Source of the DNA: Gautieria morchelliformis
Taxonomy: Eukaryota > Basidiomycota > Agaricomycetes > Gomphales > Gomphaceae
DNA length: 64,000 nucleotides
Assembly: GCA_015179125.1 (NCBI GenBank)
Contig: WHVA01000001.1
Span: 434,001-498,000 of the forward strand
Direction of reading: 5' to 3'
Part shown: in pieces, positions 20,347 to 43,445 of the stretch
Numbering within the stretch: the stretch's first letter is position 1
Layout: every line of letters begins with the position of its first letter
Made by a program: the position numbers and the translations under genes
The notes under the pieces: generated by a model
Databases searched by the model: none
Seen by the model: only the letters and a program-made list of their open reading frames with translations
What the model was told of the DNA's origin: nothing

Positions 20347-20347
20347 A
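20184..20347 (+). repeat. 164-bp direct repeat, copy 1
   Basis: Identical by eye to 21257-21420, offset 1073 bp. Both run from GCTGGCCTTTTTG to AAACAATCTA. They flank the proline-rich segment. Copy 1 ends exactly where the near-perfect palindrome begins. Confidence 0.9.
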
Positions 20348-20400
20348 CCCACTCTGCTGGATCGATCATTAGTCCCGTCTGGCTGCTGTATAAGTAATAG

Positions 20401-21294
20401 TCATACCTCGTAGGGTCGACGGGCAGCGCGTCTCCTCTCTCTCTCTGCAGCACGCCGTCCCCTCCCTCCATCTCCTCTCGCTTCGGTGTCCCTCGCAGAG
20501 CCTGGCAGCCTGCTCCGGTTGGACCCCTCGCCCAGATTGGGTCGCGGGACCACGGTTGCATATCGTTGCACAGGTTTCCGAGGGCGGCTGCTCCTGCGCA
20601 GTAACTTTGGGATGGGCGGTGGCGGTGGGAGGGCCGGAATGGGTGGGGGTGGTGAGAGGGCCGGGGTGGGCGGGGGTGGCGGGAACACCGCGGATGTATA
20701 TCTTTGTACCGGTTTTCGAGGGCGGCTGCTCCTGCGCGGTAAATTTGGGATGGGCGGTGACGGTGGGGGCGCTGGGATGGGCGGCGGCGGTGGGAGTACT
20801 GGGATGGGCGGCGGAAGTGCGAGCGCGTGAGTGGGCGGCGGTGGTGCGGGCACCGGGATGGGCGGTGGAGGTGCGGGCACCGGGATGGGCGGTGGAGGTG
20901 CGGGCACCGGGATGGGCGGCGGCGGTGCGAGCGTGTGCATGGGCGGCGGCGGTGCGAGCGCGTGAATGGGCGGTGGTGGTGCGGGCACCGGGATGCGCGG
21001 CGGCGGTAGGAGCACCGGGATGGGCGGTGGCAGTGGGAGCCCTGGGACGGGGAACAGGAGCTCTGCGCGGAGAAGAGGTCGCATCTCCTCCTCCCATGTC
21101 ATCGGACGCGGATGGCAAGGGCAAAATCCACCATCATGGAAACCAGGGAGAATGTTACGGTTCATTGCGCACAAATGGTGGTTGTTTTCAAGATCAGCAA
21201 TGGGAGGGTTGAGGGTACCGATAGGCTTATATGAAGATTTTCCACTGAGCGCGCCCGCTGGCCTTTTTGAACAAAGACCATGCTTACTAATCAA
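20401..21294 (-). CDS. Proline-rich ORF with repeated basic motif, 297 aa
   Basis: No known family. After about 75 ordinary residues comes a run of PPPPIPVPAP-type repeats made by a GC-rich minisatellite, then the motif RRSSRPRKPVQRY twice (about residues 187 and 233), then an Arg/Glu-rich tail. Two other frames are open across the same DNA, as expected for simple repeats, so protein coding is uncertain. The basic motif resembles linker sequences of retrotransposon polyproteins but nothing else supports that. An identical copy is at 42498-43391 (+) and a shorter one at 51732-52223 (+). It sits between 164-bp direct repeats. Confidence 0.35.
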   Translation of the reverse strand: MISKHGLCSKRPAGALSGKSSYKPIGTLNPPIADLENNHHLCAMNRNILPGFHDGGFCPCHPRPMTWEEEMRPLLRAELLFPVPGLPLPPPIPVLLPPPRIPVPAPPPPIHALAPPPPMHTLAPPPPIPVPAPPPPIPVPAPPPPIPVPAPPPPTHALALPPPIPVLPPPPPIPAPPPSPPIPNLPRRSSRPRKPVQRYTSAVFPPPPPTPALSPPPPIPALPPPPPIPKLLRRSSRPRKPVQRYATVVPRPNLGEGSNRSRLPGSARDTEARGDGGRGRRAAERERRRAARRPYEV

Positions 21295-21420
21295 TTGAAC
21301 GGGCCATTGCTGCGGCCGCCATAGGAATTAGTGACACAAGCACGCACCCATACTTCCCGTAATCCTGCTGTGCCAACAAACTTACAGGATGAGCTTTCTT
21401 GACGTCTGGGAAACAATCTA
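21257..21420 (+). repeat. 164-bp direct repeat, copy 2
   Basis: Second copy of the repeat at 20184-20347. The right palindrome arm has only this copy (about 42372-42535), and a diverged one lies near 51490-51640. Confidence 0.9.
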
Positions 21421-21479
21421 GCTAATGCTTTCTCCAGGTCGTGCTTGCAGCTTCTATTGTTGCAGGGAAACGTATGTTC

Positions 21480-21770
21480 CCGCCTAGTCCTATTTTTCAG
21501 CTATTCTTTCGCACCAGTTTTTAGAGATGCCAGGGTCACGAATATAATCCATCTTCACATCATTACCTACACTCATCCCATTCTTCGGTGGATACTTTTG
21601 ACGTTTGCTATGTCTACCAGCCTTTGGAGGAGCTCTACGTCCTTCTCACCACCAATAAGCCTTCAAATATCCTCTAGGACATCGAGATGCTTCCCTCGCC
21701 TTGTGAGCGACCTGTGTCGATCAGCTGAGATTTGAGGCACGCGTTCGAGCTGCCTGGCGCATTCGATAAA
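21480..21770 (+). pseudogene. Unrecognised gene fragment (YQPLEELY type), copy 1
   Basis: In one frame the strand reads [15 protein letters not shown], then a stop, then DIEMLPSP, and after another stop FELPGAFDKMVSLAWRDQI. The first part is clearly related to the fragment at 25193-25395, and DKMVSLAWRDQI to a scrap at about 55080-55160 (-). Intron-like CAG acceptors precede it (about 21470 and 21510). With at least two in-frame stops it is a relic of a spliced host gene whose function I do not recognise. The copy at 42022-42312 (-) is identical; a diverged one lies near 51206-51475 (-). Confidence 0.5.
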
Positions 21771-22324
21771 ATGGTGAGCCTGGCATGGAGGGACCAGATT
21801 ACAGTAATCTCATGCAGGTGAAAAGTAAACCTTCCTGCCGTCGTACAAGAACGGTAAGAAGATACTGGTTGCTCGAATGGCACCGAAGCAGGCGTCGAGA
21901 ATGAATTTGAGGACCCCGCTGGTTCCGCAAGAGGTGCATCCACCCAGCCCTCAGCTAGCCGTCAAATTAGCTTCTCCGCGCCACGCAGATGAGAAATGGG
22001 GGGATATCACAAAGACCGCGGAGCTGAATATGAACCACCTCTCTGTGGAGGTGAGGTGACCGACACTGTCCAGGAAAGACGTCAAAGTTTGGACGTGGCA
22101 AAGCGAACAGGGAAATATGATGCGTACGCGTTCATTGCCATTCGATGAACTTTCGGCCTTACGACTCGGTCCTGCCTTCGCCAGAACACTTTTATCATGG
22201 AATATGTTTCCAACACGCCGATGGTCGCGGGGCAACCATAAAGATAGCAACCTAAGCTAGGCAAGCAGACAACGGAGGATAGCACACCTTTAACACTGCG
22301 AATTTCTCAGGTTTGTAAACGGAC

Positions 22325-41113: not shown

Positions 41114-41144
41114 CGGGATATAAATTGACGGTCCCGGTCAAGAG

Positions 41145-41468
41145 TCAAACACGCACCGCTGTCGTCATCGTCACATCGAAGGTCGCTCGCTCCACCTCAC
41201 GCTTCGTCCTCTCTTTCTCCCCATCTTCCATGCCATCGAGACCTTCAGCCTCTTTTACCAATCCTCTGATCCTCTCACGACGTTTCCTTTGTATTTTTCG
41301 ATAACTCTTGTTCTTCATCTTCGCGACCCGCTTCGCCTTGGCATCCGCGCAGAACATGAGTTCCCACTTCCGCTCGTCGCACCGTGACTGAAAAAGATGG
41401 TTCTTGTACGTTCCCCGGGTTCGTATGGCATTGTAGGTTCCCGTGACAAAAGGGGCGCGTATGCGCAA
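41145..41468 (-). pseudogene. UTP14: UTP14 fragment, part preceding RHKN motif, mirrored copy
   Basis: Same 107 codons as 22325-22648, with the AKAKRVAKMKNKSY core. It lacks the following LRHKN segment. Non-functional scrap. Confidence 0.75.
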
Positions 41469-42021
41469 GTCCGTTTACAAACCTGAGAAATTCGCAGTGT
41501 TAAAGGTGTGCTATCCTCCGTTGTCTGCTTGCCTAGCTTAGGTTGCTATCTTTATGGTTGCCCCGCGACCATCGGCGTGTTGGAAACATATTCCATGATA
41601 AAAGTGTTCTGGCGAAGGCAGGACCGAGTCGTAAGGCCGAAAGTTCATCGAATGGCAATGAACGCGTACGCATCATATTTCCCTGTTCGCTTTGCCACGT
41701 CCAAACTTTGACGTCTTTCCTGGACAGTGTCGGTCACCTCACCTCCACAGAGAGGTGGTTCATATTCAGCTCCGCGGTCTTTGTGATATCCCCCATTTCT
41801 CATCTGCGTGGCGCGGAGAAGCTAATTTGACGGCTAGCTGAGGGCTGGGTGGATGCACCTCTTGCGGAACCAGCGGGGTCCTCAAATTCATTCTCGACGC
41901 CTGCTTCGGTGCCATTCGAGCAACCAGTATCTTCTTACCGTTCTTGTACGACGGCAGGAAGGTTTACTTTTCACCTGCATGAGATTACTGTAATCTGGTC
42001 CCTCCATGCCAGGCTCACCAT

Positions 42022-42312
42022 TTTATCGAATGCGCCAGGCAGCTCGAACGCGTGCCTCAAATCTCAGCTGATCGACACAGGTCGCTCACAAGGCGAGGGA
42101 AGCATCTCGATGTCCTAGAGGATATTTGAAGGCTTATTGGTGGTGAGAAGGACGTAGAGCTCCTCCAAAGGCTGGTAGACATAGCAAACGTCAAAAGTAT
42201 CCACCGAAGAATGGGATGAGTGTAGGTAATGATGTGAAGATGGATTATATTCGTGACCCTGGCATCTCTAAAAACTGGTGCGAAAGAATAGCTGAAAAAT
42301 AGGACTAGGCGG
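42022..42312 (-). pseudogene. [12 protein letters not shown] gene fragment, mirrored copy
   Basis: Reverse complement of 21480-21770, carrying the same in-frame stops. Function not recognised. Confidence 0.45.
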
Positions 42313-42497
42313 GAACATACGTTTCCCTGCAACAATAGAAGCTGCAAGCACGACCTGGAGAAAGCATTAGCTAGATTGTTTCCCAGACGTCAAGAAAGCT
42401 CATCCTGTAAGTTTGTTGGCACAGCAGGATTACGGGAAGTATGGGTGCGTGCTTGTGTCACTAATTCCTATGGCGGCCGCAGCAATGGCCCGTTCAA

Positions 42498-43391
42498 TTG
42501 ATTAGTAAGCATGGTCTTTGTTCAAAAAGGCCAGCGGGCGCGCTCAGTGGAAAATCTTCATATAAGCCTATCGGTACCCTCAACCCTCCCATTGCTGATC
42601 TTGAAAACAACCACCATTTGTGCGCAATGAACCGTAACATTCTCCCTGGTTTCCATGATGGTGGATTTTGCCCTTGCCATCCGCGTCCGATGACATGGGA
42701 GGAGGAGATGCGACCTCTTCTCCGCGCAGAGCTCCTGTTCCCCGTCCCAGGGCTCCCACTGCCACCGCCCATCCCGGTGCTCCTACCGCCGCCGCGCATC
42801 CCGGTGCCCGCACCACCACCGCCCATTCACGCGCTCGCACCGCCGCCGCCCATGCACACGCTCGCACCGCCGCCGCCCATCCCGGTGCCCGCACCTCCAC
42901 CGCCCATCCCGGTGCCCGCACCTCCACCGCCCATCCCGGTGCCCGCACCACCGCCGCCCACTCACGCGCTCGCACTTCCGCCGCCCATCCCAGTACTCCC
43001 ACCGCCGCCGCCCATCCCAGCGCCCCCACCGTCACCGCCCATCCCAAATTTACCGCGCAGGAGCAGCCGCCCTCGAAAACCGGTACAAAGATATACATCC
43101 GCGGTGTTCCCGCCACCCCCGCCCACCCCGGCCCTCTCACCACCCCCACCCATTCCGGCCCTCCCACCGCCACCGCCCATCCCAAAGTTACTGCGCAGGA
43201 GCAGCCGCCCTCGGAAACCTGTGCAACGATATGCAACCGTGGTCCCGCGACCCAATCTGGGCGAGGGGTCCAACCGGAGCAGGCTGCCAGGCTCTGCGAG
43301 GGACACCGAAGCGAGAGGAGATGGAGGGAGGGGACGGCGTGCTGCAGAGAGAGAGAGGAGACGCGCTGCCCGTCGACCCTACGAGGTATGA
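42498..43391 (+). CDS. Proline-rich ORF, mirrored copy, 297 aa
   Basis: Identical to the frame at 20401-21294. Here the frame lies in the presumed older context, followed by sequence that also follows the related fragment at 57902-58195. That supports this repeat family having once been a longer unit of ORF plus downstream sequence. No start or splice signal decides whether it is translated. Confidence 0.35.
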   Translation: MISKHGLCSKRPAGALSGKSSYKPIGTLNPPIADLENNHHLCAMNRNILPGFHDGGFCPCHPRPMTWEEEMRPLLRAELLFPVPGLPLPPPIPVLLPPPRIPVPAPPPPIHALAPPPPMHTLAPPPPIPVPAPPPPIPVPAPPPPIPVPAPPPPTHALALPPPIPVLPPPPPIPAPPPSPPIPNLPRRSSRPRKPVQRYTSAVFPPPPPTPALSPPPPIPALPPPPPIPKLLRRSSRPRKPVQRYATVVPRPNLGEGSNRSRLPGSARDTEARGDGGRGRRAAERERRRAARRPYEV

Positions 43392-43445
43392 CTATTACTT
43401 ATACAGCAGCCAGACGGGACTAATGATCGATCCAGCAGAGTGGGT

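What the first reader, a model, noticed from the sequence alone, without database searches (positions are those of the whole stretch)
20347..43445. Large near-perfect palindrome with LINE-filled centre
20347-25747 and 38046-43445 are reverse complements with one single-base difference found over 5.4 kb; the arms continue inward as 25736-26739 and 31056-32059. A 4.3-kb spacer of LINE E and LINE B sequence separates them. Pseudogenes, repeats and gene scraps are all mirrored. This may be a recent inverted duplication, a palindrome kept identical by arm-to-arm conversion, or an assembly artefact in which one arm was copied.
Basis: seen in the sequence. Interest (0 to 1): 0.8.

Follow-up and report, generated by a model that had tools for sequence, protein, structure and literature searches.

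The report
Fungal-type palindrome kept identical by conversion
A real DNA palindrome in a repeat-rich, probably fungal, chromosome region has two arms that stay almost identical, most likely because the cell copies one arm onto the other, although only gene scraps and transposon pieces were recognised in the arms.

Summary
The palindrome is real in the assembly and the coordinates hold. Outer arms 20347-25747 and 38046-43445 differ by one G-run indel; inner arms 25736-26739 and 31056-32059 differ at 8 places. A 6-kb LINE (32060-38045) lies in the right arm with a 12-bp target-site duplication, so it landed after both arms existed. Decisive is a sister locus about 107 kb away on the same contig: same inverted arms and same arm/flank junction, but another centre and a deletion in its right arm. 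Over the 632 bp that all four arms share, arms differ by 0.48% and 0.64% within loci but 3.0-3.35% between loci; all 16 two-against-two columns group arms by locus. So the palindrome predates the split of the loci and its arms were homogenised since: arm-to-arm conversion, as in sex-chromosome palindromes. In the window homogenisation ends at the LINE: 0 substitutions in 5,400 bp outside, 6 in 1 kb inside. A copied-arm artefact is unlikely; consensus blurring needs reads to exclude. New member of a known kind, of moderate interest because no intact gene was recognised in the arms.

The parts
20347..25747 (+). left outer arm
   Evidence: one 1-bp indel against the right arm
38046..43445 (-). 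right outer arm
25736..26739 (+). left inner arm (part of a minus-strand LINE, LINE-X, whose 3' end lies at about 25444)
   Evidence: 8 differences to the right inner arm
31056..32059 (-). right inner arm (the same LINE-X part, as a plus-strand element)
26740..27524 (-). spacer, part 1: continuation of LINE-X from the left arm
   Evidence: alignment to the 6-kb LINE; Pfam RNase H in the neighbouring frame 26056-26796 (-)
27550..31055 (-). spacer, part 2: second LINE (LINE-B) nested in LINE-X, cut off at the centre junction 31055/31056
   Evidence: (RVT_1, RNase_H); A-rich tail at 27526-27571 and repeated target bases on both sides of LINE-B in the sister locus
32060..38045 (+). 6-kb LINE (LINE-E) inserted in the right arm after the palindrome existed
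32048..32059 (.). target-site duplication of LINE-E, inner copy
   Evidence: site once in the left arm (25736), twice in the right arm, once in each arm of the sister locus
38046..38057 (.). target-site duplication of LINE-E, outer copy
20184..20347 (+). 164-bp copied insert at the left edge, identical to 21257-21420; 6-7 bp microhomology on its outer side; stands where three native copies have about 1.7-1.8 kb
43446..44285 (-). outer continuation of the right arm, absent from the left arm
   Evidence: contiguous with the arm in copies on C326, C203 and C1:372 kb (to 44279, 44189 and 44285)
44286..51056 (+). right flank (A'), inverted copy of C1:427576-436358, whose last 2,358 bases are window 1-2358; its junction with the arm is shared with the sister locus

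Best explanation
It is a LINE-centred palindrome, older than the duplication that produced a sister locus about 107 kb away, whose arms are homogenised by arm-to-arm gene conversion (copying of one inverted arm from the other during repair). Likely history: (1) a fold-back or template-switch event inside a nested LINE made an inverted copy of the arm, joined at 44285/44286 to a different flank [inferred]; (2) the locus was duplicated along the contig [shown]; (3) in each locus the arms were overwritten by one another, once or repeatedly [shown as grouping of arms by locus]; (4) a LINE landed in the window's right arm [shown by the target-site duplication and empty sites]; (5) at least one later conversion covered the whole outer arm and ended at or near that LINE, which as a 6-kb heterology probably blocks its spread [pattern shown, cause inferred]; (6) the left edge was trimmed with a 164-bp copied insert [shown; its time relative to the other steps is unknown]. 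No cellular function is proposed: only scraps were recognised in the arms, so the identity looks like a by-product of repair between neighbouring inverted repeats.
For: Over the 632-bp stretch held by all four arms, arms differ by 0.48% within the window and 0.64% within the sister locus, but by 3.0-3.35% between loci. Of 23 variable columns, 16 group arms by locus and 0 group them in either other two-against-two way; the other 7 are singletons. Over 2,943 columns of both window arms and the sister left arm, 62 are unique to the sister arm, 2 and 1 to the window arms. Both loci carry the same arm/flank junction (44285/44286; C1:582850/582851); of the 64 matches listed for this stretch only these two span it. 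The right arm of the sister locus is the same arm with an internal deletion. LINE-E sits in one arm only, with target-site duplication; the site is empty in the three other arms. Differences: 1 in 5,401 outside LINE-E, 8 in 1,005 inside; Fisher p 2.8e-6. Private substitutions of LINE-E: 37 of 2,986 columns, 22 of them not CpG transitions, against 0 substitutions between the outer arms.
Against: No reads were available, so arms falsely made equal by consensus polishing cannot be excluded. The four-arm test rests on 632 bp of LINE sequence, and 2 of the 4 substitutions between the sister arms lie within 15 bp of its deletion joint. Divergence between loci varies along the sequence: 1.45% in one arm piece, 2.1% over 2,943 columns, 3.0-3.35% in the 632 bp. 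LINE-E private substitutions may partly predate its insertion. A same-contig direct pair of the arm family (C305) is also unusually close at 1.27%, so closeness of neighbours does not need a palindrome. One long copying event would explain the outer arms as well as many small ones. The centres of the two loci differ, so their common palindromic origin rests on the shared outer junction and arm order.
Confidence: 0.83

Rival explanations
1. Recent inverted duplication: the window palindrome formed not long ago by a fold-back event and the arms have simply had no time to diverge; the sister locus became palindromic on its own.
For: Outer arms almost identical; the centre junctions of the two loci differ.
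Against: The same arm/flank junction is in both loci and in no other of the matches listed; LINE-E landed after both arms existed and carries up to 37 private substitutions in 2,986 columns; the inner arms, part of the same palindrome, differ at 8 places while the outer arms differ at one.
Confidence: 0.1
2. Assembly artefact: one arm was copied onto the other by the assembler or by gap filling, or differences were erased by polishing with reads from both arms.
For: Near-identity over 5.4 kb; no reads available to test it.
Against: One-sided LINE with target-site duplication; 8 inner differences retained; the right arm runs on for 840 bp in native order that the left arm lacks; the sister locus shares the arm/flank junction although its sequence is 1.45-3.35% diverged. 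A hairpin-type chimera would not have a 4.3-kb one-sided spacer (general knowledge).
Confidence: 0.05
3. Two independent LINE insertions in opposite orientation brought inverted similarity, without a palindrome.
For: The inner arms are LINE sequence; the copia pair next door (9038-13374 and 15113-19617) did arise from separate insertions.
Against: The outer arms outside about 25444-25747 are non-LINE sequence (a Utp14 scrap, an F-box/LRR-like scrap, repeats) mirrored over 5 kb, and the LINE sits at the same base in both arms.
Confidence: 0.02

Closest known systems
Palindromes of the human and ape Y chromosome (P6; Hallast et al. 2013, PMC3723533; abstract and passages read)
   Same: Inverted arms made alike by conversion, with tracts of kilobases and occasional inversion
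   Different: Gene conversion there was followed in 378 phylogenetically placed chromosomes; here two loci of one assembly, arms of 5-6 kb without recognised intact gene, one arm split by a LINE, in a genome of fungal type and on a chromosome of unknown kind
Primate X-chromosome palindromes (PMC8981503; listing and passages read)
   Same: Arm identity above 99%; spacers structurally unstable, part of a spacer in one species being arm sequence in another, much as between window and sister locus
   Different: Comparison there is between species; here between two loci on one contig
Palindrome on accessory chromosome 14 of Zymoseptoria tritici (PMC3681731; passages read)
   Same: Large palindrome in transposon-rich fungal DNA, flanked by outward-facing Copia remnants, compared there with Y palindromes
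   Different: The 11 passages shown do not analyse conversion between its arms; it lies in the 500-550 kb interval and is described as very large
Homogenisation of short inverted repeats by template switching in Saccharomyces cerevisiae (PMC8604942; abstract and passages read)
   Same: One arm serves as template for the other; spacer inversions occur
   Different: Short repeats in coding DNA of a yeast, not kilobase arms
Actively maintained inverted repeats of Caenorhabditis (PMC1803023; abstract read)
   Same: Structure conserved more than sequence, implying active homogenisation
   Different: Gene-bearing repeats in worms

Membership tests
Palindrome with arm-to-arm gene conversion | two long inverted arms of at least 99% identity around a spacer | tested here: met
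Palindrome with arm-to-arm gene conversion | palindrome older than the divergence of its arms (present in the common ancestor of two lineages) | tested here: met
   sister locus shares arms, order and the arm/flank junction; the two centres differ, so this is an inference from the junction and the order
Palindrome with arm-to-arm gene conversion | arms group by locus, not by side | tested here: met
   16 of 16 two-against-two columns among 23 variable columns of 632 bp
Palindrome with arm-to-arm gene conversion | physical reality (spanning reads, normal depth) | not testable with these tools
   no reads; indirect support only
Palindrome with arm-to-arm gene conversion | GC-biased conversion | not tested
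   no substitution between the outer arms to polarise
Sex- or mating-type-chromosome palindrome | lies in a non-recombining sex or mating-type region and carries reproductive genes | tested here: inconclusive
   no such gene in the arm ORFs scanned (10 of the 25 listed); chromosome identity unknown
LINE insertion by target-primed reverse transcription (LINE-E) | A-rich tail and target-site duplication with empty site elsewhere | tested here: met

The most novel reading that the evidence does not exclude
Two sister palindromes on one contig evolve in concert although their arms contain no intact gene, and a single LINE insertion sharply splits one arm into a freshly homogenised outer part and an older inner part. 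This would show that arm-to-arm conversion needs no selection on genes, and that a LINE can end it locally.
Probability: 0.4. Interest if true: 0.6.

Novelty: new member of a known kind. Interest (0 to 1): 0.45.

Why it matters
Palindromes kept identical by conversion are known best from sex chromosomes, where protection of genes is a common explanation. Here only scraps were recognised in the arms, a sister locus acts as a natural replicate, and an inserted LINE acts as a natural barrier. That makes two questions testable: does conversion occur without selection on genes, and what stops its spread?

Tried and rejected
Rfam scan of the window: no match at gathering score. tRNA scan: none. Pfam scan of 19 different window ORFs (ten each, one ORF in both); 10 of them lie in the left arm, out of 25 arm ORFs of at least 85 codons listed, so 15 were not scanned. 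In the arm, RNase H (LINE) and Utp14 (22319-22645) passed their cut-offs; an LRR/F-box hit at 24487-24834 and NIP_1, Zincin and others were below cut-off. Naming the organism failed: the best HSP70 match is broken by gaps of 41-52 bases that look like short introns, but gives no name; 'fungal' rests on the type of LINE and copia and is recalled knowledge. I first took C1:582626 as the LINE 3' end; the alignment showed it is a break inside the LINE. I also considered that the sister locus shows the state before the palindrome; the native order of other family copies shows instead a deletion in its right arm. A pure inversion of the spacer between loci does not suffice, because the centre junctions differ. 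Control: seven arm-family copies (window left arm, sister left arm, and the five others for which loci were held). The inverted pair on C332, about 52 kb apart, differs by 3.26%; for one member the next nearest is 3.49% (C305), for the other 4.86%, so the pair is nearest to itself but far from homogenised. The direct pair on C305 differs by 1.27%, the next nearest being 3.49%. Paper searches: 28 papers, 20 listed; 25, 12 listed; 1; 1; 26, 12 listed. Among the titles and abstract starts listed, none reports conversion between kilobase-long arms of a fungal nuclear palindrome; short repeats in yeast are covered by PMC8604942, and PMC12510652 (passages) raises the idea for Cryptococcus mating-type loci.
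Full report
THE OBSERVATION. The window is bases 434001-498000 of contig C1 (730 kb) of a 122-Mb genome in 1,113 contigs. Self-comparison confirms the inverted arms 20347-25747 and 38046-43445 with one difference, the length of a G run at 21998, and the inner arms 25736-26739 and 31056-32059 with six substitutions and two one-base indels. All six inner substitutions are transitions at CpG, as expected if CpG is methylated there (inference).

ANATOMY. The inner arms and part of the spacer are one LINE (here LINE-X): its 3' end lies at about 25444 and it runs on through the spacer to 27524, where a second LINE (LINE-B, 27550-31055, minus strand) is nested. The centre junction 31055/31056 joins the cut end of LINE-B to the inverted LINE-X. 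The right arm is interrupted by a third LINE (LINE-E, 32060-38045, plus strand), whose 12-bp target site occurs twice around it, once in the left arm and once in each arm of the sister locus. LINE-E therefore landed when both arms already existed. Outside the LINE the arms hold repeats (27-bp arrays) and gene scraps: a Utp14 piece passes its cut-off, an F-box/LRR-like piece does not. No intact gene was recognised, with 10 of 25 arm ORFs of at least 85 codons scanned.

EDGES. Other copies of the arm family continue across the right edge in the same order (C326, C203, C1:372 kb), so the right arm natively runs to 44285. Three family copies (C203, C1:372 kb, C47) show that the left flank natively adjoins the mirror of that stretch, after about 1 kb. 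In the window's left arm these roughly 1.7-1.8 kb are gone; in their place is a 164-bp piece identical to 21257-21420, with a 6-7 bp microhomology at its outer side. That is a usual mark of a break healed by template switching (recalled knowledge). At 44285/44286 the right arm is joined, by inspection without clear microhomology, to a flank (A') that is an inverted copy of C1:427576-436358, 95-98% identical.

THE SISTER LOCUS. C1:554635-590002 holds the same units in the same order: left arm 554635-555530 and 564635-567580 (a 9-kb insert between), a centre with LINE-X and LINE-B, right-arm LINE 581314-582626, then the A' flank. It lacks LINE-E. Its LINE body is joined to the right arm rather than the left, so the centre has the opposite orientation, and its centre junction is a different one. 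Its right arm stops inside LINE-X at the base equivalent to 25586, about 140 bp before the end of that LINE, and resumes at the base equivalent to 44060, with two or three shared bases at the joint. The remaining 226 bp up to 44285 are arm sequence in native order. The arm/A' junction is the same in both loci, and of the 64 matches listed for that stretch only these two span it (the tool scored its best 40 candidates). The common ancestor therefore most likely already had both arms. An alternative in which the deletion was ancestral and the window's right arm was refilled from the left arm also requires arm-to-arm copying.

CONCERTED EVOLUTION. Over the 632 bp held by all four arms, window arms differ at 3 of 631 bases, sister arms at 4 of 628 (two of them within 15 bp of the deletion joint), and the four comparisons between loci at 19-21 of 627-632. 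Of 23 variable columns, 16 unite arms of one locus, none unites same-side arms or crossed arms, and 7 are singletons. Over 2,943 columns, 62 changes (2.1%) separate the sister left arm from both window arms, and only 3 separate the window arms. Elsewhere the loci differ by 2.65-2.74% in the spacer, 1.45% in an outer piece of the left arm, 1.63% in the right flank and 1.74% in another arm piece. The arms are thus older than the split and yet several times more alike: they have been homogenised within each locus.

THE LINE AS BOUNDARY. In the window, differences are 1 in 5,401 outside LINE-E and 8 in 1,005 inside it; Fisher p 2.8e-6, or 1.5e-5 for substitutions alone, or 2.1e-6 counted per CpG. 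The first inner difference is 29 bp from the insertion. LINE-E itself has 37 private substitutions in 2,986 aligned columns (22 not CpG transitions) against three copies at about 97% identity; I used 3,000 of its 5,986 bases and three of the four copies listed at 97%, the fourth being a fragment. If all these arose after insertion, and the arms evolved alone at that rate, about 80-134 arm differences are expected and no substitution is found. Some private changes may predate insertion, so this is an upper bound.

HOW IT WORKS. Best reading: intrachromosomal or sister-chromatid repair copies one inverted arm from the other; at least one such event postdates LINE-E and covered the outer arm up to it. 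The number and direction of events are unknown. Fold-back formation inside the LINE is inferred from the inverted centre and the end-joined outer junction. Differing centres of the two loci fit the instability of palindrome spacers reported for primates (PMC8981503, passages) and the rare inversions of human P6 (PMC3723533, passages).

LIMITS AND CONTRARY RESULTS. No reads. Four-arm evidence is 632 bp. A direct same-contig pair of the family is also close (1.27%), while an inverted pair about 52 kb apart differs by 3.26%. Literature was searched in one open library only.

Noticed in passing
9038-13374 and 15113-19617: An inverted pair of copia elements that looks like a second palindrome but is two insertions: the second has identical 222-bp LTRs, a 5-bp target-site duplication, and an empty site in the sister locus.
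   Followed up: yes
1-2358 (end of C1:427576-436358) and 44286-51056: A larger outer inverted repeat around the whole structure, 98.4% over its outer 4.25 kb but 95-96% nearer the palindrome; the sister copy is only about 88% over 2.5 kb of that outer part.
   Followed up: partly
1-1220 and 45407-45867: 124-bp tandem repeats, 9.8 and 3.7 copies, in opposite orientation, part of the outer inverted repeat.
   Followed up: no
25776, 25783, 25890, 26343, 26355, 26635: All six substitutions between the inner arms are transitions at CpG, suggesting CpG methylation of this repeat.
   Followed up: partly
22319-22645 and its mirror in the right arm: A scrap of a Utp14 gene in the arms.
   Followed up: no
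L046 and L047 (contigs C767 and C935, base 1): Two contigs begin within the arm-family repeat, hinting that such repeats may break the assembly elsewhere.
   Followed up: no
L013 and L015 (C305): Two direct copies of the arm family on one contig differ by only 1.27%, closer than to any of the five other copies compared.
   Followed up: no
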